Origin: Gymnothorax reevesii
Lineage: Eukaryota; Chordata; Actinopteri; Anguilliformes; Muraenidae
DNA: 64,000 nt
Reading direction: 5' to 3'
Assembly (NCBI GenBank): GCA_029721435.1
Contig: CM056588.1
Location: forward strand, 40,813,430 to 40,877,429
Shown: positions 5,964 to 56,144 of the stretch, piece by piece
How positions within the stretch are numbered: position 1 is the first letter of the stretch
Layout of the letters: every line of letters begins with the position of its first letter
Notes under the pieces: generated by a model
The model's input: the letters and a program-made list of their open reading frames with translations, nothing else
What the model was told of the DNA's origin: nothing
Database searches by the model: none
Translations under genes and position numbers: made by a program

Positions 5964-18813
<12,850 letters not shown>

Positions 18814-21469: not shown

Positions 21470-22510
21470 CAGTGGTTCTCAACGTCCTCCCTTAGAAACC
21501 GGTGTAAGCTGCTTTTTGTTCCAATCACAATTTCCAGCCCAGAATTTTTACAAGGAATTCATTTTTTTAAAATTGGACCATTAATGTTTATAGCGATAAT
21601 CTCCCCTTTTAATACGCATTTTGCCATAATATTAGCCAAGCGTGCTCTGACGGGCTCCATATTCATACTGTACCATGTTGCAAACTTTTTGCATTAAAAG
21701 GGGGAGAAAACTGCAACAGATGATATTAAAGAAACAATGCTTGTAATCAGTGAAAGCGTGGACACATTGTCTATAAAAAAATATATACTTGGTAGTTAAT
21801 GACAAATTCAAAGACAAAGCGTGAGCCAAACTTTGTGTAACATGAAAAAAAATCAGTCACGTTCACCAATGTCATTAAGACCCGAATGTTTCACCATCTT
21901 CAACTAGATTTAGTCAGTAAGCATGGCTTGCAGGATACCCCCCGCATGTATATCAGTACATTCATACTGAAACCATCAGACCTACAATAACAAAAATGTG
22001 TAAACACTACAAAAAACAAGTAGTCAGGCAGTACCACAGTCAACAGACCTTGCACCAAGAGAAAAAATTGTCAAAATCGGATGAGTAGGTTATAAGATCT
22101 AGGTCCGGACGCACAGACGCACACACACACACACGCACACAGACACACGCACGCACACACATGCACGCACGCACGCACGCACACACGGACGGACACCGCA
22201 AATCCAGTATACCCCCCTAAACTTCGTTGCGGGGGGTATAATAAACTTTGTTGCGGGGGGTATAACAATATGCAGCCTTTTTTGTAAATGTTCACAATAA
22301 AGCACAATTTTTATCCTAAATGCACTGCAGCTATAGCCATGTTGGACACTGTGGCTAATAAGGGTAGCTGTGATGCCATTAAACATGAAAATTAAAAACA
22401 TTACCTAATTAAAAACATGTAACAGCTGCTTAAAATAGTGATTTCAGTTGCAGTTAGATTGAAAACCAGCAAACGCAGGGGGCCCCCAGGACCTAAGTTG
22501 AGAAACACTG
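21470..22510. mobile_element. hAT-type non-autonomous element
   Basis: Ends are CAGTGGTTCTCAACG and GTTGAGAAACACTG, the classic hAT-type terminal repeat. Flanking octamers CAAAACAT and CAATAAAT match at 6 of 8 positions, as expected of an old target duplication. Inside are a CA/CG microsatellite and two direct GTTGCGGGGGGTATA blocks (about 22228-22263), probably from a further insertion. Confidence 0.6.
22113..22192. repeat. CA/CG/GACG microsatellite
   Basis: Mixed CA, CG and CAGA repeats end in GGACGGAC. Open frames across it on the minus strand are low-complexity artefacts. Confidence 0.75.
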
Positions 22511-24278: not shown

Positions 24279-27200
24279 TCATGACTCCGCAAGAAAATGA
24301 TGTGAGCTTGGTAGACTGTAGTCAAACAGGATATGGGGCCGCACGTGGGCGAGGATGGGGCCCCTAGGGGCGCCGGCCAGACAGAAGGCCTGGTCCATGT
24401 CCAGGCCCCGGCTGCGCAGCATCTTAAGGGCTCGGGCGCACACGTCCCTGGGGCCCCGCGCCACCATCAGGAGGGTGCAGAGAGGGCTGCCGTCCCACCC
24501 GAACCTGCTCCTCATTTTCCCCACGCATTCGGCGAACTCCATCATGGCGTCCTTCAGAAAAATAACATAAAATGTTAATTTTAGACAAAAAAATAGGAGG
24601 AATGGGAGCGCACTCCTCAAGAACACATTTTGAAACTCTGGACAGGTCAAGGTTCACTCATTTGGAACAGACTTTTTCCTGAAAACCATTTTGGACTGCG
24701 GATTCCCTTTTTTCCCCTCTAAATAGAGAGTGGACAGTCTGTCCTTTCCATGTTCCTTTTATATTTATTGAGACAAAACATAAATAAACTCAGAAATGGA
24801 GAACAGAGTGTCATGGTAGGGACTGTACCCCCAGCCCTGGTCATTACTGCTAGCCTAGCACTACGGGAGGGATGCTCATCTAGGGTTAATGTTATAGCAG
24901 TGATGTGTCAGGTTAAGCAGTTTGTGTAGTGCTGAGGAGCAGCAGCTAAAATGGAGTTACCTTTACAGCGGTGATGTGCTAGTGCTGGGTTATGCAGTTA
25001 GTGTAGTGCTGAGGAGGAGAGACTAATATAGAGTTACAGCATCTGACAAAAGTGAGTACACCCCTCACATTTCAACAATTAGACTTAGGGGGGGATCTGA
25101 TTGAGGTCTTTACATATGTTAATGGGATTAACAAAGTTAATTATGTAGGATTCCTTTGACCAAGTGTTGTTAGCAGAACTCAGGGTCACAAATGGAAGTT
25201 GACCAAAGGTAAATTTAGCACTGATATTTGGACATATTTCTTCACCCAAAGAGTAATTTCGATGTGGAGTAGCCTTCCTGACCATATTGTTGAGGCAGAG
25301 ACCATGGGGGTTTTCAAGAGCAGGCTTGACTTAAAGCTAGATACTATTGAGTCATTGAGTATCTGAAGAGATATATTCACAATAGTATAAAGAAACTGGC
25401 GAGCATAGTTAGGCTGAACGGCCTGTTCTCGCCACTCGTTAATTAATTGATTACATCTTTTCAAGGGACAACATTACGGAAATGAAACCGGAATATATTC
25501 TGCAGAAGTCCTTGTACAATATGTGAAGTAATGTAGATTTACTGAACTGTTAAAATAAGTGAACCAACAGTCACTCTTTCCAAAATAGGCAGCAACAAAA
25601 GTGGGTACACCTCACTGTCAACACGCCAAATTGTGTCCATAGTGTCAATATTTAGTGTGAAAACCATTCTTGTCCAGCACTGCCTTGATTCTCCTAAGCA
25701 TGGAATTCACCAGAGCTGCACAGGTTGTTGCTGGGATCCTCCTCCACTCCTCCATGGCAACATGACGGGGCTGGTGGATGTTGGACACCTGCTGCTCCTC
25801 CACCTTTCTCTTGCGGATGCCCCACAGGTGCTAAATGGGATTCAGGTCTGGAGACATATTTGGCCACGCCATCACCTTCACTTTCAGGTTCTTCAGGAAG
25901 GCAGTTGTCATCTTGGAGGCGTGTTTTGAATTGTTATCATGCTGGAAAACTGTTTAGCGTCCCAGTTCCCGAAAGGAGGACATCAAGTTCTGCTTCAGAA
26001 TGTCACAGCACATGTTGAAATCCATTATTCCATCAACGAAGACCCCATGCAGCCACAAACCATGATGCTACCACCACCATGTTTGACTGTAGGCAGTACA
26101 CACTTGTCTTGGTACTCCTCACCAGGGCGCCGTCACGCATGCTAGACGCCATCTGAGCCGAGCAAGTTTATGTCAGTCTTGTCAGACCACTGAACATGGT
26201 TCCAGTAGTTCATGCTCTCGGACTGATTGTCGTCAGCAAACTGTTTTCGGGCGTTCTTGTGGGCTAGCTTCAGAAGAGACTTCCATCATACCCGACAGAC
26301 ATGCAGACCAACTTGGTGCAGTGCACAACATATGGTATGAGCACTGACACGCTGTTCTCCCACTGCTGCAGCCACGCTAGCAAGGCTGCCAGCACTCCTG
26401 CGTCTGTTTTTTTAAGTCAAGTTGTGCACCTGACACAGAGCACGAGCACTCAACCTCTTTGGTCGACCCTGACGAGGCCTGTTCCGAGTAGAACCCGTCC
26501 TGGAAAACTGCTGGATCACCTTGGCAACCGCGCTGTAGCTCAGTTTCATGGTTTTACAGATCTTCTGTAGCTTAGACCATCTTTGTATACAGCAAAAATT
26601 CTCTTTTCCAGGTCCTCAAAGAGTTCTTTCCCATGAGGTGGCATGTTGACCATCCAGTGACCAGAATGACAGCATTGCACCCAAAGCAGCATAATTTAAA
26701 CCTTCAACACATTACACAACCTCATACAGCACAGTCGAACAGACAAAAGCATGAAAATGATGAAAAAGACATGTTTCATTGCTTGGTTGACCAGTACCAA
26801 TTGGGGTGTGTACTCACTTTTGTTACCACCCATTTTGGAAATAATGATCTTTGGTTCAGTTATTTGGACAGTGCAGTAAATATTCAAGCTTCATTTCTGT
26901 AATGTTGTCCCTTGAAAAGAAATAATCAATTAATTGTCCACACTGGGTTTAAAGTGCGTGAAAGTCTGAAAAAAAGATACTGAAACAAGACCTGTGTCAT
27001 TTTGTAGGTCTTAGTGAGCAGATAAAGAAAATGCAAAAATAAAAAAAATCTGTTGTGAATTTTTGGAGAAAATCCACTTTTTCATCGGCATTCAACATGA
27101 AATTTTCAAATTGACGTTAAAGGGTTAAAAAAACTTCTGCGCTTTGGTGATTTATTCCTGAAAGTCTCCTCTGCAGGGCTGTCGATCAAAAGACTGTGAA

Positions 27201-30200
27201 AAATAGTAATAGTAGTCCATCTCCTTTCTTTAACCCTCACGCGGCAAAAATGTTCTATCTAGCTAAATGTAATGCTTAGATGTGCACTATAGTACTCTTT
27301 GACGGCTTGCTTTAATCGCAGACCAAATAGTTTGTTGCTGCTATCCTTTATCTGATGCCTCTCCGAGAATGTTGAGAGGTCAGCGTAAACTGCTTCGAAG
27401 GCTTGCTCAGAATATCAAGCCAATCCACGACCATGGCACTTACAGAACACGCAAATGGTCTCTGATAATGTGGAATTTGGGTGTGATCGAGATGCCAAGT
27501 TTCGCATAGGCCTCACAGAAGTGGGAAACATGGTCTTCCCATCCACTGTTTAGGCTTTGTCCGAAGTAGGAAGTGACCATCTTTCCCATTGCTGCAAATG
27601 CATTTGCGAAGAGTGTGGCTGGATGGCTTGCTGGTGTTTTCGTCGTTGAACTTATGAGCTGGACTAAGATATCAGTTCTGCATAGTAAGGTGAAGCATTC
27701 ATTTCCCTAAAACTGTTTATGGTATTCTTCCTTCACCAGATGTAGCTTCCTTGGCCACTGGATTGCTTCTGGGTATTTTTTTTCTACTTCCATTCCAGCT
27801 GAGGTAATGAATGAAAAGGCCTATTATACATAATGTAATCAGCTGCCAATTGTTCCTACCACACAAAAGGAATGTCCTTGACTATTGGATTAAAGCTGAC
27901 CAACATGAGGGGTTATATTCAGGGATTTAATATTTTCATATTTGTGACAATAAATTTGGTTACCATGGTAACCATTTTGTATTTTCACCAATCTGACCCT
28001 GTGGTATGATTATCTAATAAGTCAAACAATCAAAAGAAAACATGATGGCTTGCAGTTATTAACCCCTTTCTTAGGATTTTGCAATTCAAGATGACTGCTA
28101 CATGAACAAGAGTTGCCAGAAAGACAATAAAGCTCGCCGGGGGGCAACCATCATTATTTACTGTTTTACGACCTGTGCTTTACTGTTTTACTACCTGTGC
28201 TTTAAAAAAACTTTAAGGTCAGGTGAAGGTCAAGGTCAAGGTCATCAGGTCAAACTTCGGCATCAGTAGGTAGGTCTTGCACCAAGGAGTACACAGGCAA
28301 AGTATGAAAGCCCTGTCTCTCACGGTTCAAAAGTTATGGGCAAGGTTAAAGTTTTCTAAAGGTCAGTCAAAGGTCAAGGTAACGAGGTCAGAAATTTTGG
28401 CATCGGTAGGTAGGTCTGGCATCAAGGAGTACACATGCAAAGTATGAAAGCCCTATCTCTAATGGTTCAAAAGTTATAGGCAAGGTTAAAGTTTTTGTTA
28501 TGGGCAAGGTTAAAGTTTTTTAAAGGTCGGTTAAAGGTCAAGGTCAAGGTCACCAGGTCAAAATTTCAGCATCAGTAGGTAGGTCTTGCACCAAGGAGTA
28601 CACATGCAAAGTATGAAAGCCCTGTCTCTCACGGTTCAAAAGTTATGGGCAAGGTTAAAGCTTTTCTGCATGCGGACGAACGCGGACGCCGGGGGTACGA
28701 CAATAGCTCTCCGGACATTCGTCCCGGCGAGCTAAAAACATGGATTTTCTCCAAAAATTCCCAACAGATTTTTTTTATTTTTTGCATTTTCTTTATCTGC
28801 TCACTAAGACCTACAAAATTACACAGCTCTTCTTTCAGAATTTTTTTTTCAGACTTTTAAGCACTTTAAATCCAGTGTGTATCAAAATGTGAGGGGTGTA
28901 CTCACTTTTGTGAGATACTGTACCTTTACAGCTGTGATGTGCTAGTGCTGGGTTATGCAGTTAGTGTAGAGCTGAGGAGGAGAGACTAATATGGAGTTAC
29001 GTTACCGCGGTGATGTGCTAGTGCTGGGTTATGCAGTTAGTGTAGTGCTGAGGAGGAGAGACAAATATGGAGTTACCTTTACAGCCATCATGTGCTGCTG
29101 CTGGGCTTCGCTGAAACCCATTTTTGTCAGAAGTGGTGCTGGGTTGTCAGTCAAGCCCAGTAAGTCCCCCATGAACAGAAGTCTGAGCTGGTCGCTGGGG
29201 TCTGGATCATCCTGTGAGTATAACAGTGCTGCTGCAACACCTGTGTGGGACACGGAACCACAGAGTCTACTCATAAACCAGATTTTGTGCTCCTAGAGTA
29301 ATTATAAAGTCTACGCTCTTGGGAACGAGTGGGATTCTAGTTGGCAACCTGAGATTCTGCTGCCATGTAACAGTTCTTACACCCATCAGCCCCCACCCAT
29401 CTACAGTTTATCATGTAATGTATCTTGGATGCCCCAATCCAGTCATGGACTCGGACACATACAAATAAAATATGAGGAAGGGCATAAGATTAAGGATTGC
29501 GTGATTCCAATATCTGCTGAATTAACAGTGTGATTGCAGAGAACTCGCTCTCCCAGAATCCTCAGCAACAGGCAGGCCCAGACAATGCTCGCGAGCTATG
29601 ACGAATGCAGATTTCTCGCTTGATAAACTGCAGTGATTGAGCAGTGTTCTAAGTGTAGATTGCACACACACACACCCCTCTGCCATGCCTTGCAAACTTC
29701 ATTCCGGTCTGTTGACAAGAACAGCTTGACGTTGTTTGACTGCAGTGGTTCCGCAAAGTCTTCAGGTCCACAAAAGCAGAATCGGCCGACCTCCAGACCT
29801 TGCAGGAGAGAATAGGGAGACGGTGTTGAAACAACACTCGAATGACACAAAAATGTGCCTTTCAGGCCGTATTCATGCATTTGCATATTCCAAAATGGCT
29901 CGTACCATAATGCTCCACACTGGTCTCTATCCTGGAGCGGGTGTGGGAACTATGATTTGTCAACACAAGGATCACATCAAACAGCGACGTTTCTTCTGGA
30001 TCCATCTCCAACAAGTCCTTATTAACCCTCTTTATTGTCTGCAGAGGACAAGAAAAACAGATGGAAAATATCCACTAAAACACTGGCTATGTGACTTGCA
30101 ACGTGGTTCCCTTTACAAGTCTGCCTTGTTACCCCCTTGGCGATTCTTGTCGATGGAGTATTGTCAGTCCTTTCGCTGTCAGTACATCTGTCTGTCCTCC

Positions 30201-33200
30201 CATCACTTTTCCCTGTTCTAGGTGCTCAACTGTTGTAGGGACAGCCCTCAGATTTAAGTAGCTTATACTTATTGGGTGTCTCCAGAAGCGTATTTGATGT
30301 CAAGGTCATAGCTCCGATTTCAGCTCAACTTTTTCAAGTTCAAAGGTCACCCATAAGGCATGGAGGCGAGTATATAGCACCGAGCGCTATCTAGTGTTAG
30401 ATTTATTATTATTAATTCTTTGAACTGCAGGGCCATGTTTAAAACTTTATTCAATTTCCAAACTACTATGGCCACCACCAGGCAGCGACTGTTATCACTT
30501 ATATATTGACTTCTAAGCTCAAGATGGTTTAAAAAATGAATATTAAAGCAAAGACAACCCAGAACCACAATCATACCTTTGAGCACACAGACTGGCCACG
30601 CACCAAGTCATGCGACGGTCCACAATCAGAACACGTACTTTGAACTTTTTTTCCGCCTGATCTGAGCGAGGTACTTCTGAAGATGGTGTGATGAGGAAAT
30701 TTGAATGCTGTGTGAGGCAAGTCTGCTTCGTAAACATGCTTTCTGACTGCAGCAAACCACAGTTTCCTCATAGTTTCTTGGTGCGCACCGCTGCTCAAAG
30801 TTTCGTTCCGTGTCTGGTTACACCGCAACAACCCTTAACACCTAACAGATGTGAAAAAAAGGGATTCTAAAGTCTTCTGAACTATGCAATTTAAAGTGGA
30901 CATGGTGTTCACGGGTGAACTGCAGGAAAACCAAACAAAAAGTCCTGCATCCTCAATTCTGCCACATCGTATCTGGCAGTGTGTTCTTCCCCATGATTAC
31001 ATCATCAGTGCTGACACCACTTAAGGAATTTGAAGGTCACGCATAGTGCTTGTGTAAATTTAAGAATGCACATAAATAATGCTTGTCACTATTGGAAAAT
31101 ACAATTTTAATTCATATTGCGCTCTGTTATGTACGCAATACGCAGAACCCTTTGAAACACATGATATAGCCTAAACATGACTAACGATTAAAAATATAAC
31201 ACATTTAGTTAAATTAGTTGGCTATTGGCAGGTTTAAGATCCAGGTTAGGTTCATGATTGTGAGAATCGACTCAATAGATGACACGTTCTTTCTGCATGT
31301 TGAATGATGACAATAAAAAAATATTGTCATCATCCATCAGGTATAATTCCTGACAGAGGTCTCCCCAATTATGCCAGCAATACCCTCGTCTGCAGTTGAT
31401 AGTTGTGACTGTGAGCCGCCTCCTCCTGTGGCTGATGTATTTTTTGTGCACTTTACCTCCAGTTTCATGTCAAACCATTTACTCTTCACCTCGGACTTGG
31501 TTCTTTGTACAACAGAGACAACATTAACAGCATCTGTCACCTCCATCCAGGCCTTTGCTTTGCCTGTCCCTGTCACACCACTGCTAACAGATGAAAATAA
31601 AATGTTTTTTCTTAACTCCAGTTCACCCAAAATTATTTCTATCTCCGCTTCGAAAAAATTCTTTTTTCTTTCTCTCCCTTTCTTTGTTTGCGCCATGACT
31701 GACAGGTCGACTGGATGCATCTACACCTCCTTATATGGTGGTCATTGGCAATTCATGGGCGGGGATTTATGCTAATGTCGGGAGCGCGCTGTCGCCTAAC
31801 GATGGATTGGCATTCATGATCATACACACGTGTTTACGATCAGATCTGAGTTTCCCGCGGTGTTCATGAATCCGGAGTAGGTTTGCAGTAGCGTAGGATT
31901 TTATGTGCAAATCTTCGCACATATTTACTAACGTTTCATGAATGACACCCATAGTCTTCAGTAACTTGTTTAGCCACTATTTAAGTGCTTAGGCACCACA
32001 TAGAACTTGTGGATATTTAACCAACAGTTATATTTAGCTACGACTAACATGTCACAGATAAACACAGGAAGGAAGACACTTGTCAGAAACATTGTCATTT
32101 GCTTAAGGACTACAAGGGAAGGAAATGTAATTTTTTTTTTTTTCCAGTTACTGCACAGCAACAGTTTTTCACTCTATTATGCATGCATCCATTTGGTCAT
32201 ACAGAACTCCTCAGACGTACCATACAGTAAAAAGTCTGCTTAAAAGACTGCCAGCTCTCATGATGAAGATTAATATCAAGTAACCATTGAAAGATGATAA
32301 CGCATTATCAATTTTATTACGATCAATGCTGAAATGAAGCTTTTGCTCTTGGCTATCTTTCATTCAAAAGGGCTGAGGGAAGAATCAACTGTGAAATGCG
32401 CTTGGTGCAAAGCTGTTTGGGTGGTTGTAATGTTTCATGAGCCTCCCCTGCGGACGCTTAAAGCACATCTTTCTCATGCAGCATATCCTCATCCACTAGT
32501 ATGTCAACCCCCACCAAGAAGACCAAAGGGTGCTGCTCCCTATTGGAGTAAATAATTACTGCACCCAATTTCAACAAGTCAGTCTGCCAAAAAGGAGCAG
32601 CACCTCTCATATGGCAGCCCAATTATCAGATGATAAACAGGAGATTGACTACATCAGTAGGATTCACTAAATTCATTTGGAAACTGGGTACAAGGGAAAA
32701 GCAAAAAAGCTACAACTAGTCTTGAGGTCCTGATTATTCATGGCCTAAACTCCTGTGGCCAGCATCTTTTTACCTTAATAAAGGGAAACGCTCTGCCCAT
32801 CTTAAAAGGCTCATCATCATAGGCAGTGGAGTCTCTGTCAAGCCCCTCCTCCTCCCCCAGGTCAAAGATGGAGCTGGCAGTCACTGCTATGACCACTGCC
32901 CGAGACATGTCTTTCTGTAGAGGGAAACAGTGATTATATGCACAGCTTTTCAATCTAGAGCCACTATAGATTATATCAACAGAAAAATGGAAAAGTACAA
33001 TGGAACAGTCTTTAATAGAAGTCTGAAACTCGGTGAGCATTTTTTCCAGACAAATACACTTAATGTCACATCAATATGGGGGGGCCGGGCGGGGGCACAC
33101 AGTGAACGGTAAGAAATGCATATAGGTAGGATACACATGCTCCTTGTTTGTAAGAAACAGGTGATATTACTGAATAGATAGCCAGTGACTTTGCCCTTCA

Positions 33201-35696
33201 AATGCACTCTTGAACAATCATACAATATTGGGCTCATTAGGCACTCCCCTACACTCTAAGTTTGACAGCCGTTGAAGGTTATTATATCCCTGAACGCTGA
33301 ATGGCGTTACGAGGGATATTATGTTTTTGGTCCGGCCGCCGCACTACGTGTTAACGCAATAACTTCAGTAATATTTCAATTACAAATTCCAAATTTTGCA
33401 AATAAGTAAGTATCATAAAGAGGAAGAACTGATTCGATTTTGGACAATTTACGATGTCTAGATTGGCCACAGGCCACCAGGGGCCAAAAACTGATTTCAG
33501 TGTTAACGCGATAACTGTAGTAATATTTCAATTAGAAATTCCAAGTTTTGCATATAAGTAAATATCATAAAGAGGAAGAACTGATTCGATTTTGGACAAT
33601 TTACAATTTATCTCTAGATTGGCCACCAGGGGCCAAAAACTGATTTCAGTGTTAACGCGATAACTGCAGTAATATTTCAATTAGAAATTCCAAGTTTTGC
33701 ATATAAGTAAGTATCATACAGAGGAAGAACTGATTCGATTTTGGACAATTTATCATTTCTAGATTGGCCACCAGGGGCCAAAAACTGAAAAAAAATCACT
33801 GTTTTTATCATATTTCTGGAAATATTGACCTCAAATCAAGTGCAAATGAAATGAGGATGTGTCCCACGATGACATTATACCTGCTTGGTTCAAAATTTTG
33901 ACACAAGGTGGAGCTTTGTCACATAAAATTCACCATTTTTGCTATATCTTTGGAACTATTTCTCCAATTGACATGAAACTATGTGTAACTGCAAGCTCAT
34001 GACCTCAAAACGTGTCTCATGATGACATCATACCTGTATGGTTCAATATTTTGCCACCTGGTGGCGCTTTGTGATGGAAAATTACCATTTTGGCCATATC
34101 TTCAGAACCTTTTGACCGATTGACCTGAAATTAAGTTCAAATGAAAGTGTATTCAAGGTCTATTCAAGGATTGGGGAATTGGAGGATTGGGGGCGTTCGG
34201 GGATATACCCCCATCCGTCGCCTCCAACGGCATAAGCCTAGTTTTTATATGCAAAAGTGATCAAAACAGTTTACCTTCCTCATCCGCCTCTCTTTGCTAA
34301 CAGTGCAGAAATAATTTAGATACTCTGCATTTGAATAAAACAAAGATTGACCAAATAAGCTTAAATTTTAAGTGGGGTACCATGTTTTTCTGACCAGAAG
34401 CACTGGAACATAACTAGAGCACTTGGCAACCGAGCACATGTATTCCCCGAAGGCCCTCTAGTTGGGCCCAGATGGTCCCAGAGTACCCAAAATCAATAGG
34501 CGTTGTGAACATACCATAATACATGTCCCTGCAAAATTTGAAAAGAATCGGTGCACTTATGTGGGCTATAGAGCGTTCACAAGAAAATCTCTGCGGACGC
34601 GGCGGACAAGTGACGAGGCCAAATCAATAGTATCCTCGAACTTTGTTCAGGGGATAAAATTAGATTGGAACTCAGGAAAATCAACTTGGAACCGAAGTTA
34701 CAAACTTCCGTCCAATATACAAACAGCAACCAAATGTCAGAGTGCAATGTGCAAATTAAGGGCTCTTATTTTTCCGAGTATTTGTTCCAAGTTTGATTGT
34801 GTTGCATTTTAAAGTTCTTTGAATAAGCTTTCACTTGAGGCCAACTTTTTGAAAATCAAAACAGGCCCACGTGGTCAAAATGAGGGTCAAAAGGTGCACC
34901 GTTTCAGTAATTAGCTGAAAAGGGGTTAATGTTTCTCCAAATTGGATGAAGATAGAAAGATGTTTTTACCTTCATTTGAAACTCCGTCATGTATACTATC
35001 AACAATGTAAATGGCAAAGGGGACATTCTAAGGATACTTGCATAATACATGTATTTCATTTGAAATCGACATGTTAGGCACCAAATTTCAATGTTTAGGG
35101 GTTAATTGCAAAGCACTCAAAGGGTTAATCACTATATTAAAAGGTTTGTAGCAGACTATTAAACAGAATAAACATATCCTGAAAGAATGAAATTTGTATC
35201 CTTATTAGTTCATTGGTTATAACCCTTTGAAAATGGTCACAAACTGTGACCAGAGGGTTAACGTGGGACACGCCCCCTTTTTCGGGGGCCCATAAACTGA
35301 GAACGGAACGAGATATCAACTTCAAACCACCTGCAATTTAATTTGCTCATCACAGGCAACGAACTATTACCAAATGAAGCATTTCTGAGACCATCAAGAT
35401 GGAAGCTTGGGTGATTTCATATGGAATGACCCTGACGTTACATAAAAGATGGATGAAGCAGTCGAGTCGCTAGATACCGAAGCCATTCATCAAATGAAAT
35501 AAATGAAAAAAATACCGACTTGTATTGCTAACAATAATTAAAACTTAATGACAACTTAACCTTCCTGGTCTGAACTGATCACCATGCGGAAACATTTTTT
35601 TTTCTCAAAAGCCGAAGGGATTCATTTGGACAGTACATTCAGAGTAAATGGACTCACCGCTTTCACTCTCGAGTTAATAACGATACTTGCATCCAT
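24279..35696 (-). CDS. Cytosolic 5'-nucleotidase 1-like protein, probable pseudoenzyme (6 exons, 290 aa)
   Basis: Exons in order: 35696-35658, 32914-32774, 30038-29906, 29798-29676, 29240-29077, 24551-24279 (stop TGA). All junctions are GT-AG and phases match. The protein follows NT5C1A/NT5C1B along its length: RAVVIAVTASSIF (N-terminal strand), GRAFPFIK, LFDVILVLTNHSS, VEHYGLEVGRFC, AAALLYSQ, then ARALKMLRSRGLDMDQAF, LAGAPRGPI and RPHILFD. NT5C1 enzymes hydrolyse AMP/IMP in the cytosol. Here the residues expected to be catalytic are altered: FDGDAV is FMGDLL (M169 replaces the nucleophile Asp, D171 kept); LVTARS is LMVARG (V230 for Thr); GAPKG is GAPRG (R263 for Lys); FFDD is LFDY. At 290 aa it is shorter than NT5C1A (368 aa), missing N- and C-terminal extensions. 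An acceptor-like TTTCAG directly precedes the ATG, so an upstream non-coding exon is likely. Exon structure is solid; lack of activity is inference. Confidence 0.88.
24884..25036. repeat. Decoy-donor minisatellite, distal part
   Basis: One good and one degenerate copy of a ~76-base unit (TGATGTGCTAGTGCTGGG ... GAGGAGGAGAGAC ... GGAGTTACCTTTACAG) lie in the last intron of the nt5c1-like gene. It continues at 28921-29076 on the other side of the Tc1 insertion. Each unit repeats the end of exon 5 plus its splice donor (see findings). Confidence 0.75.
25085..25440 (+). mobile_element. 5'-truncated LINE 3' end (L2/CR1-like) inside the Tc1 element
   Basis: The plus strand reads the C-terminal end of a reverse transcriptase ORF with one early stop: KWKLTKGKFSTDIW, YFFTQRVISMWSSLPDHIVE, GVFKSRLDLKLDT. 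The 3' tail GGCTGAACGGCCTGTTCTCG is common in fish LINEs. The Tc1 terminal repeat resumes at about 25441. Confidence 0.7.
25620..26650 (-). pseudogene. Tc1 transposase remnant
   Basis: The minus strand shows successive Tc1 transposase blocks, C-terminal part first on the plus map: a MEEWRRIPATTC-like end with PATTCAALVNSMLRRIKAVL near 25680-25760, then the DDE core and the N-terminal helix-turn-helix toward 26640. Several frameshifts and stops break the frame; no intact open frame remains. Confidence 0.8.
26939..28878. mobile_element. Non-autonomous DNA transposon nested in Tc1
   Basis: Terminal inverted repeats of about 150 bases: left CACTGGGTTTAAAGTGC..., right ...GCACTTTAAATCCAGTG, continuing through AAAATGCAAAAAATAAAA and GTCTTAGTGAGCAGATAAAG on both sides. 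On the minus strand at about 27390-27700 a decayed frame reads YFGQSLNSGWEDHVSHFCEA and GISITPKFHIIRDHL, like the C-terminal part of a transposase-type protein. Superfamily unassigned. Confidence 0.7.
28215..28665. repeat. Three ~140-bp tandem units inside the nested transposon
   Basis: Each unit holds AAGGTCAAGGTCAAGGTCA, then GGCATC(A/G)GTAGGTAGGTC, CACCAAGGAGTACACA and GGTTCAAAAGTTAT.GGCAAGG. The last unit runs into TGCGGACGAACGCGGACGCC, a GC-rich block common to fish elements of this kind. Confidence 0.75.
28921..29076. repeat. Decoy-donor minisatellite, proximal part
   Basis: Two copies of the ~76-base unit directly abut the exon 5 donor of the nt5c1-like gene (exon end at 29077). Unit spacing is 76-77 bases, measured from TGATGTGCTA at 28935 and 29011 to the matching TCATGTGCTG at 29088 within the exon. 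Confidence 0.8.
31025..31960. mobile_element. PIF-Harbinger-like element carrying the MYB-like ORF
   Basis: Approximate borders. The left part contains CGCATAGTGCTTGTGTAAATTTAAGAATGCAC and the right part GCACATATTTACTAACGTTTCATGAATGACACC. The same blocks recur, inverted, at about 63440-63655, which argues for one mobile family. Exact ends and the expected 3-bp target duplication were not resolved. Confidence 0.45.
31337..31720 (-). CDS. PIF-Harbinger MYB/SANT-like protein (transposon-derived, 127 aa)
   Basis: This open frame in the second intron of the nt5c1-like gene resembles the MYB-like DNA-binding protein of PIF-Harbinger transposons and their host relatives (NAIF1, MSANTD). Recognisable blocks are KKNFFEAEIEIILGELELRK, ILFSSVSSGVTG, KAWMEVTDAVNVV and RTKSEVKSKWFDMKLEVK: a trihelix with conserved tryptophans. 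The start is the first Met of the frame (31720); a second Met nine codons later (MAQTKKGRERKK) is a better initiator. The frame is intact over the whole domain, but no Harbinger nuclease frame was found nearby, so it is a lone element remnant rather than a host gene. Confidence 0.6.
   Translation of the reverse strand: MHPVDLSVMAQTKKGRERKKNFFEAEIEIILGELELRKNILFSSVSSGVTGTGKAKAWMEVTDAVNVVSVVQRTKSEVKSKWFDMKLEVKCTKNTSATGGGGSQSQLSTADEGIAGIIGETSVRNYT
33283..34230. repeat. Dispersed repeat family A, copy 1, with internal tandem triplication
   Basis: Begins ATTATATCCCTGAACGC and ends GGCGTTCGGGGATATACCCC, so the ends are roughly inverted repeats. Inside, a ~165-base unit (GTTAACGCGATAACTGNAGT, AAATTCCAAGTTTTGCATA, GAGGAAGAACTGATTCGATT, GGCCACCAGGGGCCAAAAAC) is repeated three times. 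Blocks with CATATCTT.GGAA and CACCTGGTGGCGCTTTGTGA follow. Copy 2 lies inverted at 52568-53270. Confidence 0.75.
34300..35650. other. Repetitive intron sequence of the nt5c1-like gene
   Basis: First intron of the nt5c1-like gene. Blocks such as CCCTGCAAAATTTGAAAAGAATCGG and AAACTGAGAACGGAACGAGATATC look like mobile-element debris, but no defined ends were found. Open frames at 34462-34812 lack any recognisable domain. Confidence 0.35.
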
Positions 35697-53400: not shown

Positions 53401-56144
53401 GTGTTTCTGAGCCCATGCAATGTATTCAGTGCAGAAACATGCCTCTTTTTAACATAGTGCTGCCTGAGAGCCCGAAGATCACGAGCATCCAATGTTGACC
53501 TTCGGACTTGTCCCTTGCACACAGAGATTTCTCCAGATTCTCTGAATCTTTTGATGTGATATGGAATCAGTGACACCAGATGCGGGAAAAGGGAATGAGG
53601 ATTTTATTATAAACCAAAACAAAACAGGCACGAGGGCCAACAAAAAACTTGGCCCAATGGGTTGCAAAAAACAAACTAAGGAAGCTACACAGAGCTATAA
53701 ACAATAAATGCAAAAGGCAAAAAACAAAAGGCACTGGAAACTCCAGGCAAGATGCACAAGAAAAGTAAATAACAAGACTAAATATATATATATACAAGAC
53801 GAGAGGCTAGGACAAATACTAGGGAACTTGACAAGAACTTGGCTAAACGAGACGCGACTAGAAACAAACTTGAGACACTGTCTGCCAGCCAACTTCCACC
53901 GCAACCAGATAAAGGCTTGGAAATCATGACATGAGGGGTAACACCTGGAGAGAGAGAAACAAGAGGCATGGCAAGATCAAGACATGGACAGAGATTGGAT
54001 GACATGACCTGCTCATTAAGAGAATGAGCGTGCTCAGCTTAAGTACCAATTAAGTATGCAGTTTGGAAGCAAGCATGAATGTTAAGAACAGAAAAGCACA
54101 GCAAGATCTTGAAATAGCAAAGCAGGAATCATGACAATAAACTCCCTGTCTAAATTAGTAGTATTAGTAATGTGCCTATCTAAGAATTACACCAACCCAG
54201 TGAGTGTTAGTAAATGTTAGTAACTTAAAAACAGTTAATTGTCAATTAAGCTTAGAGAGCTTCGAATCAGCACAGCACAGAAGGAAGAGGGAAATACCAA
54301 AGCCAACCCAGAGCTCTGAAATGTGCAACAACGAAGGCACGGGGCGGAACGCAGACAAGCGGTGGAGTGGCATGGCAGACCTGGCATGAACAAAAACATG
54401 GAAAAGTAAAAACATGGACATGGAATGTGAATTATGAAATGTAAAATCCTAATACAAGAAACTGTTAAACTATGACATGAACATGAACTATGAAACATGA
54501 AACTATGAACTATGAAATCTTGAAACTTGAACTATGGAACATGAAACTGTTAAAACCATAAATACTGTTCTGGCCAAAGGCCAGAACCCTGGAACACAAC
54601 ATGATGATATAATGTACTGTAGATTCAAAGTCTTTGCAATTTTACATTGAGGAACATTTTTCTGAAATTGTTCCACAATTTTTATATGCAGTTTTTTTTT
54701 GCAGATTGGTGAATCTCTGTCCATCTTTACTTCTGAGAGACTCTGCCTCTCTAAAATTCTCTTTTTATACTCAGTCATGGTACTGACCTGTTGCCAATTA
54801 ACCTGATTAGTTGCAAAATGCTCCTCCAGCTGTTTTTTTTTCTTTTTAAAATTATTAGTAGAACCACTTATACTTTTCCAGTCTTTCATTGCCCCTCTCC
54901 CAGCTTTTTTTAGCAGTGTTGCTGCCATCATATTCAACACGAGCTTTTGTAATATTTTTCATGAAATGGTAAAATGTCTCACTTTCAACATCTGATATGA
55001 TGTCTATGTTCTATTTTGCATAAAATGTGGTTTAATGAGACTTGAAAATCATTGCATTCTGTTTTTATTTACAATTTACGCAGCATCCAAACTTTTTTGG
55101 AATTGGGGTTGTGCATTTCTACTGTCTACTGTAGATGCCTCTGAGCCCATAGAAGTAGACTGTGCTTAATATGAGGCTGCCTCCTTTGTACTTAAATGAT
55201 TTAATTGGAACTAGAGGGTGTGACTGTTATTATAATACTTGAAAAAGGTCTGCTACAGTAATCCTGAACCCATTTGGTTTTATCATTTATAGATAAATTA
55301 TGGTTCTTGAGTGAGAGGAGGTCATAGATATTCAGTGTAGGCTTGTGCACATTACGCACAGAAATTCCTCCAGGTTCCTTGAGTCTTTAACTTATGTTAT
55401 GCACCTTAGAGAGTGAAATATTCAAATCCCTTACTACCTCTCTTTCAGGAACATTTTTTAAACCTTTCAAGAATTTTCTCATGGATCTGTGGGCAGATAG
55501 TGAATCTATGCCCTAACTTTGATTCTGAGGAACTAGGCCTTTCCTGTAGGCCTACGCTGCTTTTGTGCCAAATCATGATTACATCACCCACTGAAACCAG
55601 CTGTTTCAAATCAAAGTTCATTATTATCAAATCACACTTTTTTTTTACCTCATTAGTAGTCTTGAATTATTCTCAAAGCATATTTTTTGGGAATGCGTTG
55701 CAAGCCTGAATCCCAGGAATGGAGGAATATGAACAAATAAAATGAAGTTGACAGGGCAAAACATGTCTTCTCTTGGTGCTGTCAGCAATGAATTACAAGT
55801 TAGAAATTTAGAAATCACTGCCTCCTATTTTAAACTTTTTTAAAATATATGATTATATCATTAAGCATGCGGCGCTTTCATGATCACTAATTGCCTGTCT
55901 TCTCCCCTTGTAGCGCGTTCAGCTGGTAGTGGCAGTGTGGGACCATGACAAGATGAGCAGAAATGATGCCATGGGGAAGGTGCTTCTCGGGTGTGGGGTT
56001 TCTGGGAACCAGTTACGGCACTGGGCAGACATGCTCCTGAACCCACGCCGACCTGTGGCACAGTGGCATATGCTGCTGTCCTCTGAACAGGTGGACTCCA
56101 CTTTGAAGCTCAAACGCTCTATCCCTGTCCCATTTATCAACTAG
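41485..56144 (+). CDS. syt8: syt8, synaptotagmin 8 (complete, 8 coding exons, 395 aa)
   Basis: Coding exons: 41485-41590, 43299-43468, 44062-44157, 45205-45372, 46094-46261, 49013-49127, 51654-51787, 55914-56144 (TAG). Phases agree; seven junctions are clear and intron 7 uses GC-AG (CAG|gcaagt). A short luminal N-terminus with an NST glycosylation site leads to one membrane segment (residues ~39-60, [19 protein letters not shown]) and a Cys/Lys linker. C2A (about 107-236) has calcium-ligand positions D139, D145, D197, N199, D205; the usual third-loop Asp is Asn. C2B (about 237-395) keeps all five: D269, D275, D329, D331, D337, plus a polybasic KRWKKNK strand and the family signature [19 protein letters not shown]. 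Synaptotagmins couple calcium to membrane fusion. Symbol chosen by domain layout, length (human SYT8 ~401 aa) and synteny with cathepsin D; a related paralog (syt1/2/5 group) is the alternative. Confidence 0.88.
42724..43135. mobile_element. 412-bp palindromic MITE (MULE-like) in syt8 intron 1
   Basis: An almost full-length palindrome: CACACTTTATTTGAAGTGTT at the left and its complement at the right, continuing through CATAAAGGCTTTATA, GACATAATGTCT and CACATCTGGCATCA arms. It is flanked by the 9-base duplication GCAAACTCA (42715-42723, 43136-43144), a length typical of Mutator-like elements. Confidence 0.85.
43145..43290. repeat. TTAGCATGCTAACA minisatellite before syt8 exon 2
   Basis: Irregular tandem copies of GCTAACATTAGCATTAGC run up to the acceptor of syt8 exon 2. 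Related units also lie left of the MITE (about 42690-42714), so the MITE landed inside this repeat. Confidence 0.7.
44190..44800. mobile_element. DNA transposon fragment in syt8 intron 3
   Basis: Blocks AAAATATGGACATTTATTCA, AATGGTGTTTGATGGGATTGAGATCAAGGG and CTTGACAAACCATGT resemble a transposon widespread in fish. Ends and superfamily are not defined, so this is a weak call. Confidence 0.35.
46576..48619. mobile_element. 2-kb TTAA-flanked foldback element (piggyBac-like) in syt8 intron 5
   Basis: Ends AGCTGCAGTTGGTCAGTT and ACAAACTGTAGCT are imperfect inverted repeats directly next to TTAA on both sides (46572-46575, 48620-48623), the piggyBac target. No transposase frame. Its right half is filled by a second foldback (47680-48361). 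Confidence 0.55.
47680..48361. mobile_element. Foldback unit nested in the TTAA-flanked element
   Basis: Arms GTCGTTGGACCTGAAAAATC and its near complement at about 48325-48358, continuing through GGGGCTAATATGCCTCC / GGAGGGATGTTAGCCCC and ACTAATTAATCCTGGC / GCCAGGACTAATTATT. Inner arms (CTTCTCTCC.CATGCGATCTGAAAGCGA) match the hAT foldback at 50652-51383, so the two are related. Confidence 0.6.
49530..49962 (+). mobile_element. 5S rRNA-derived SINE in syt8 intron 6
   Basis: The 5' head matches 5S rRNA: GCCATACCAC, then GAAGCTATGCAGGTGTGGGC and TTGGTCAGTACTTGGCTGGAA, which cover the internal promoter boxes. A conserved body with TTTCGGATGAGACGTTAAAC and GAGGTCCTGACTC follows, and an A-rich AATAAAAA tail closes it. 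This layout fits SINE3-type elements of fish. Confidence 0.75.
50652..51383. mobile_element. hAT-type foldback, 732 bp, in syt8 intron 6
   Basis: Ends CAGTGGCGGAGCTACAGGG and CCCTGTAGCTGCGCTACTG, flanked by perfect 8-base duplications GGTGGCAG (50644-50651, 51384-51391). Long arms (CCCTTTTAGTCCTGGCTAGA; GATGACGTCTTTTCCAAT-like; CGATCTAACAGCGAT) make most of it self-complementary. The open frames inside (50637-51074 and its antisense) are palindrome by-products. Confidence 0.85.
52568..53270. repeat. Dispersed repeat family A, copy 2 (inverted to copy 1), syt8 intron 7
   Basis: Reads as the reverse complement of 33283-34230, from GCCGTCGGAGGCGACGG through GCGCCACCTGGTGGC and GAATCAGTTCTTCCTCTTTA to GGCGTTTGGGGATATAATTA. 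Only one ~165-base unit is present, where copy 1 has three. Confidence 0.75.
53285..55115 (-). mobile_element. Tc1-like DNA transposon remnant split by solo LTR 2
   Basis: Right end CCAAACTTTTTTGGAATTGGGGTTGTG is a terminus common in fish DNA elements; a related end is at about 60065-60090. On the minus strand a helix-turn-helix transposase N-terminus is visible on both sides of the [22 protein letters not shown] at about 54610-54680 and [14 protein letters not shown] ... [15 protein letters not shown] at about 53479-53560. The left boundary is approximate. Confidence 0.6.
53557..54601 (-). mobile_element. Solo LTR 2 (Gypsy-like), 1045 bp
   Basis: On the minus strand it starts TGTTGTGTTCC and ends CCATATCA; plus-strand flanks TGATG (53552-53556, 54602-54606) are a perfect 5-base duplication. 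AATAAA lies near the 3' end on the minus strand (plus TTTATT at about 53601). The block before the end (CGCATCTGGTGTCAC) matches GCATCTGGTGTTCC of solo LTR 1, so they belong to one group. Confidence 0.8.
55330..55720. mobile_element. Second decayed DNA transposon fragment in syt8 intron 7
   Basis: Blocks GCACAGAAATTCCTCCAGGTT, GGAACATTTTTTAAACC and GTGGGCAGATAGTGAATCTATGCCC parallel those of 53500-54720 (ACAGAGATTTCTCCAGATTC; GAACATTTTTCTGAAATTG; GATTGGTGAATCTCTGTCC). It is a diverged relative of the same kind of element. Ends not defined. Confidence 0.45.

What the first reader, a model, noticed from the sequence alone, without database searches (positions are those of the whole stretch)
24279..35696. 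NT5C1-family protein with every catalytic motif altered: probable pseudoenzyme
The six exons assemble into an intact 290-aa frame that keeps the NT5C1 fold blocks, yet the motif residues are changed together: FDGDAV to FMGDLL (nucleophile Asp to M169), LVTARS to LMVARG (Thr to V230), GAPKG to GAPRG (Lys to R263), FFDD to LFDY. A decaying pseudogene would show stops or frameshifts; none is seen across 873 coding bases and five splice junctions. That combination suggests selection for a non-catalytic role, e.g. nucleotide sensing or regulation of an active paralog.
Basis: partly seen in the sequence, partly recalled or inferred. Interest (0 to 1): 0.75.

Follow-up and report, generated by a model that had tools for sequence, protein, structure and literature searches.

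The report
Ancient dead fish nucleotidase, kept alive
A moray eel gene makes a protein related to enzymes that break down AMP and IMP but without the parts needed for the chemistry, and its relatives in gar, bowfin and teleost fishes lack the key part too, so fishes seem to have kept a broken enzyme for some other job.

Summary
Observation confirmed: six GT-AG exons encode an intact 290-aa PF06189 protein with M169, V230, R263 and D277-Y278 where active enzymes have Asp, Thr, Lys and Asp-Asp. It is not a one-off. It belongs to a third vertebrate cN-I paralogue (chicken C5NT1AL, between SYT8 and CTSD). In that paralogue 77 of 88 rows outside neopterygian fishes (shark to sturgeon and bichir) keep all six catalytic residues (7 of the other 11 are gapped there). 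The neopterygian clade (128 rows: window, named fishes, 36 unnamed rows) lacks the nucleophile Asp in 128 of 128. Lys, Asp-Asp and two lid segments were lost in steps. Sixty-one columns remain at least 90% conserved in 103 non-redundant rows. Reading: one nucleophile loss on the neopterygian stem, then retention as a pseudoenzyme. cN-I also looks like a tandem of two HAD halves with an N-half lacking the nucleophile, so here both halves look dead. Caveats: no dN/dS, no assay; the non-catalytic role is inferred; a close moray's deposited protein is frameshifted over its last 24 residues.

The parts
35658..35696 (-). exon 1, MDASIVINSRVKA
   Evidence: N-terminus recurs in eels, sturgeon, coelacanth and chimaera
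32774..32914 (-). exon 2 (N-repeat strand 1 and shortened N-lid; lid segment F30-G53 at 32866-32795, 24 residues against 33 in 45 of 45 outside rows)
29906..30038 (-). exon 3 (N-repeat)
29676..29798 (-). exon 4 (N-repeat end); donor within a GT run
29077..29240 (-). exon 5 (C-repeat strand 1, motif I, most of the C-lid segment, 39 residues against 44)
29170..29172 (-). codon M169, at the nucleophile Asp position
29164..29166 (-). codon D171, retained second Asp of motif I
24279..24551 (-). exon 6 with stop codon (motifs II, III, IV)
24462..24464 (-). codon V230, at the motif II Thr position
24363..24365 (-). codon R263, at the motif III Lys position
24318..24323 (-). codons D277-Y278, at the Asp-Asp position
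13240..13386 (-). neighbour: cathepsin D exon (ctsd), same strand, downstream
   Evidence: PF00026 E 1.8e-16; cathepsin D best PDB sequence match E 1e-21
55914..56042 (+). neighbour: synaptotagmin C2 exon (syt8 by position only)
   Evidence: PF00168 E 1.2e-4; synaptotagmin-1 E 1.4e-14

Best explanation
The gene is the neopterygian form of a third vertebrate cytosolic 5'-nucleotidase I (C5NT1AL; locus syt8 - C5NT1AL - ctsd). The ancestral protein was an ordinary Asp-nucleophile HAD phosphatase. On the stem of gar + bowfin + teleosts the nucleophile Asp was lost; Lys, the Asp pair and the lids followed in steps in different lineages, so transfer of the phosphoryl group to Asp is impossible (inferred from sequence). 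The protein was nevertheless kept as a folded, non-catalytic tandem-HAD protein. Most likely mechanism, inferred: the retained phosphate-loop elements (x-G-D of motif I, Thr of motif II, often Arg for Lys) still bind a nucleotide or other phosphate without turnover, and the conserved core serves binding of a partner, plausibly an active cN-I enzyme. In most eels, the window included, even the Thr is gone, so there partner binding is likelier than phosphate sensing. Shown: gene, motif loss, clade, lid shortening, conservation. Inferred: inactivity, selection, binding role.
For: Intact gene and PF06189 match. Nucleophile absent in 128 of 128 clade rows (C72 S41 M5 I5 T2 F1 Y1 A1), present in 85 of 88 rows of the same paralogue elsewhere (other 3 gapped there) and in 45 of 45 outside rows; nucleophile and Lys both lost in 126 of 128. 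One clade, support 100/99, 31 rows, nested in the third paralogue. D+2 kept in 122, Thr in 117, Arg at the Lys column in 88 of 128. Lid medians 15 and 24; exactly 33 and 44 in 45 of 45 outside rows and in 83 and 78 of 88 rows of the live paralogue. 61 columns >=90% conserved in 103 non-redundant rows; D181 and T245 at the 13th and 21st rate percentile; site rates correlate with the live clade, rho 0.39. Neutral simulation: at 46% protein identity 7 of 4000 copies are stop-free; gar against 101 other clade rows, median identity 0.42. Roles of the motif residues: PMC3946280 (passages). Chicken order SYT8, C5NT1AL, CTSD and an IMP/inosine association in that 1-Mb region (PMC10525433, passages); sturgeon gene model fused to an aspartyl protease.
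Against: No dN/dS, expression, binding or activity data. Protein databases under-represent broken copies, so the intact frames are a biased sample. The clade evolves fast (tree length 19.2 for 103 rows; 8.2 for 56 rows of the live clade, a crude comparison). Six rows keep both Asp of the DD pair and two keep Lys; gar keeps nearly full lids (30 and 43) and two tarpons and Aldrovandia a 33-residue N-lid, so the decay was not one event. The live paralogue is not spotless: 4 ungapped rows of 88 have one or two catalytic changes and bichir has a 39-residue C-lid. The window protein has lost the Thr, and P0001 is frameshifted at the C-terminus, which fits weakening constraint in morays. Binding of nucleotides or partners rests on residue retention only.
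Confidence: 0.7

Rival explanations
1. Relaxed constraint in morays: the gene is a conserved pseudoenzyme in most fishes but is now decaying in morays, and the window copy is an early-stage pseudogene that happens still to be open.
For: Nearest moray protein P0001 is 95% identical but reads in the other frame for 24 residues at the C-terminus; differences between the two morays include W/R and G/R in or beside motifs; moray stem branch 0.24 is long.
Against: All six window exons, five junctions and the start are intact; the path from the moray-conger node (about 0.29) is only moderately longer than Conger's (0.22); the P0001 shift falls at a run of C in the window sequence and may be an assembly error.
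Confidence: 0.2
2. New chemistry: Cys or Ser at the nucleophile position gives a different hydrolase or phosphatase.
For: C in 72 and S in 41 of 128 rows; Thr and D+2 usually kept.
Against: The position also holds M, I, T, F, Y and A; Lys is lost in 126 of 128 rows and the Asp pair is complete in only 6; both lids are shortened in most rows. The window has Met.
Confidence: 0.05
3. Pseudogene or assembly artefact with no product.
For: Motif losses; fast evolution.
Against: Open in many species on a tree that largely follows the species tree as recalled; residue-specific conservation; stop-free survival improbable at these distances.
Confidence: 0.03

Closest known systems
C5NT1AL (cytosolic 5'-nucleotidase 1A-like) of chicken, LOC770392
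   Same: Same paralogue by the tree position of bird proteins (chicken itself was not a row) and same neighbours SYT8 and CTSD
   Different: Most rows of this paralogue outside neopterygian fishes keep all six catalytic residues (77 of 88) and full lids (83 and 78 of 88); the window protein does not
NT5C1A / NT5C1B (cN-IA / cN-IB)
   Same: PF06189 family, same order of motifs
   Different: Separate clade, 100/100; 33% identity of the window protein to gorilla NT5C1A; all 45 rows outside the third paralogue (29 animal or unnamed, 16 bacterial-type) keep six of six catalytic residues
Medaka Nt5c1aa (PMC13156797; read: abstract, introduction, sections 2.2, 2.3, 4.8, first part of the Discussion, found passages)
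   Same: A fish cN-I paralogue without detectable IMP-degrading activity
   Different: It keeps motifs I and III and has a Pro to Leu change in motif S, partly reversible; so not this clade by its motifs (it was not put in my tree)
Pseudoenzymes and pseudophosphatases in general (recalled kind)
   Same: Retained fold, lost catalytic residues, ancient retention
   Different: No 5'-nucleotidase pseudoenzyme clade appeared in the listings (titles and abstract starts only)

Membership tests
cN-I / PF06189 (homology) | Pfam match above curated cut-off | tested here: met
   134.2 bits against 28.2, residues 14-277
cN-I 5'-nucleotidase (enzyme) | motif I DxD with nucleophile Asp | tested here: not met
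   M169
cN-I 5'-nucleotidase (enzyme) | motif II Thr/Ser | tested here: not met
   V230
cN-I 5'-nucleotidase (enzyme) | motif III Lys and Asp-Asp | tested here: not met
   R263; D277-Y278
cN-I 5'-nucleotidase (enzyme) | full-length lid segments (33 and 44 residues; my own observation, not a published criterion) | tested here: not met
   24 and 39
cN-I 5'-nucleotidase (enzyme) | AMP/IMP hydrolysis | not testable with these tools
   needs assay
C5NT1AL orthologue group | tree position inside the third paralogue | tested here: met
   47-row clade 100/100 against 12 NT5C1A, NT5C1B and Saccoglossus rows
C5NT1AL orthologue group | between syt8 and ctsd | tested here: met
   cathepsin D exon 13386-13240, synaptotagmin exon 55914-56042; chicken order from PMC10525433. 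The genes between were not annotated, and syt8 rather than another synaptotagmin is by position
Pseudoenzyme | catalytic residues lost across orthologues | tested here: met
   128 of 128 clade rows lack the nucleophile
Pseudoenzyme | maintained by purifying selection | tested here: inconclusive
   residue conservation and simulation in favour; no DNA of relatives for dN/dS
Pseudoenzyme | non-catalytic function | not testable with these tools
   needs binding and knockout experiments
HAD fold | HAD structures among the best fold matches of an active orthologue | tested here: met
HAD fold | HAD match of a neopterygian member model | tested here: inconclusive

The most novel reading that the evidence does not exclude
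A purine-nucleotide-degrading enzyme lost its nucleophile once, on the neopterygian stem, and became a tandem-HAD protein with two dead halves that gar, bowfin and teleosts still use as a nucleotide-sensing or regulatory partner of the active cN-I enzymes, while birds use the live version of the same gene to set muscle IMP.
Probability: 0.3. Interest if true: 0.8.

Novelty: new variant of a known kind. Interest (0 to 1): 0.6.

Why it matters
The named fish records of this clade are mostly called 'cytosolic 5'-nucleotidase 1A' or '1B', so pathway maps and work on IMP flavour in farmed fish may count a dead protein as an enzyme. It gives a natural experiment: the same gene, in the same genomic place, with catalytic residues in birds and sturgeon and without them in gar, bowfin and teleosts. 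It also points to an internal duplication in cN-I: each member seen carries a HAD half without nucleophile (1 exception in 261 rows) next to the live one, and in these fishes both lack it.

Tried and rejected

Confidence in the best explanation went from 0.72 to 0.70 because the losses are stepwise.

Full report
Observation. The minus-strand gene is as described: six exons, GT-AG introns, 873 nt including stop, 290 aa. It matches PF06189 far above cut-off. The altered residues are at the columns of the catalytic residues. The second motif I Asp (D171) and the first Asp of the DD pair (D277) remain.

Which gene. The best match is a moray, Gymnothorax javanicus, 95% over 94% of the query, so the window is most likely a moray eel (inference). 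Downstream on the same strand is cathepsin D; a synaptotagmin C2 exon lies at 55914-56042 on the other strand. A sturgeon gene model fuses this gene to an aspartyl protease. In chicken the order is SYT8, C5NT1AL, CTSD (PMC10525433, passages seen). A tree of 59 rows puts the window protein in a third cN-I paralogue with sharks and chimaera, coelacanth, lungfish, amphibians, sauropsids and marsupials, apart from NT5C1A and NT5C1B (100/100), and groups all 31 gar, bowfin and teleost rows in one clade (100/99). Bichir has a long branch and an unsure place.

Loss of the active site. In 261 aligned rows the nucleophile Asp is missing in 128 of 128 rows of the neopterygian clade, present in 85 of 88 rows of the same paralogue elsewhere (3 gapped) and in 45 of 45 outside rows. 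All six catalytic residues are kept in 77 of those 88; of the other 11, seven are gapped at one or more of the positions and four are ungapped rows with one or two changes. Sturgeon and bichir keep all six. In the clade Lys is kept in 2 of 128, one of them bowfin; the second motif I Asp in 122 and motif II Thr in 117; Arg stands at the Lys column in 88. The complete DD pair survives in 6 rows (five named characiform or gymnotiform fishes and one unnamed row), which keep four of the six residues but never the nucleophile. Thr is lost in 11 rows: five of six eel rows including the window and P0001, one of two tarpon rows, Aldrovandia and four others. So nucleophile loss maps to the neopterygian stem, the rest came in steps; the age, roughly 300 million years, is recalled, not computed. 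By the mechanism described for cytosolic nucleotidases (PMC3946280, passages) a protein without the first Asp cannot form the phospho-enzyme.

Retention. In 103 non-redundant clade rows 61 columns are at least 90% conserved, spread over both halves; D181 and T245 are among the slower columns (13th and 21st percentile), K278, D292 and D293 are not. Site rates correlate with those of the live clade (rho 0.39, p 8e-11). New near-fixed residues appear, for instance Cys at sturgeon positions 253 (100 of 103) and 272 (94 of 103). Neutral copies of this coding sequence would rarely stay open: 117 of 4000 at 67% protein identity, 7 of 4000 at 46%, before indels. Protein databases favour open frames, so the residue conservation counts for more than the open frames.

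Against it. The deposited P0001 protein follows another reading frame of exon 6 for its last 24 residues, and several differences between the two morays are radical. The neopterygian tree is long. No DNA of relatives, expression or assay was available.

Mechanism. Committed reading: non-catalytic, with a phosphate-loop remnant that may bind nucleotides in most fishes and a conserved core for protein contacts, probably with active cN-I enzymes, one of which in medaka (Nt5c1ab) degrades IMP (PMC13156797, section 2.3). In birds the live gene lies in a 1-Mb region associated with breast IMP, inosine and hypoxanthine (lead SNP p 5.83e-27 for inosine; 16 genes in the region, so C5NT1AL is a candidate only). 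This makes a role in purine balance plausible, not shown.

Noticed in passing
PF06189 family in general; sturgeon P0014 residues 19-164 and 163-315: cN-I nucleotidases look like an internal duplication of a HAD domain with an N-half lacking the nucleophile (profile comparison of halves E 2e-15; both halves match HAD phosphatases by fold).
   Followed up: partly
P0001 (Gymnothorax javanicus), C-terminus: Deposited protein reads in the other frame after the HVRP segment, relative to window exon 6.
   Followed up: partly
window 31340-31720, minus: 127-aa open frame with a Myb/SANT-like DNA-binding domain (PF13873, E 3.5e-17) inside the intron between exons 2 and 3; looks like a transposon-derived piece.
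   Followed up: no
window 25834-26615, minus: Transposase-like pieces (DDE_3 E 1.4e-4, below its cut-off; HTH_29 E 5.7e-7) in the intron between exons 5 and 6.
   Followed up: no
window 22089-22220: CA/TG-type simple repeat, seen as low-complexity frames.
   Followed up: no
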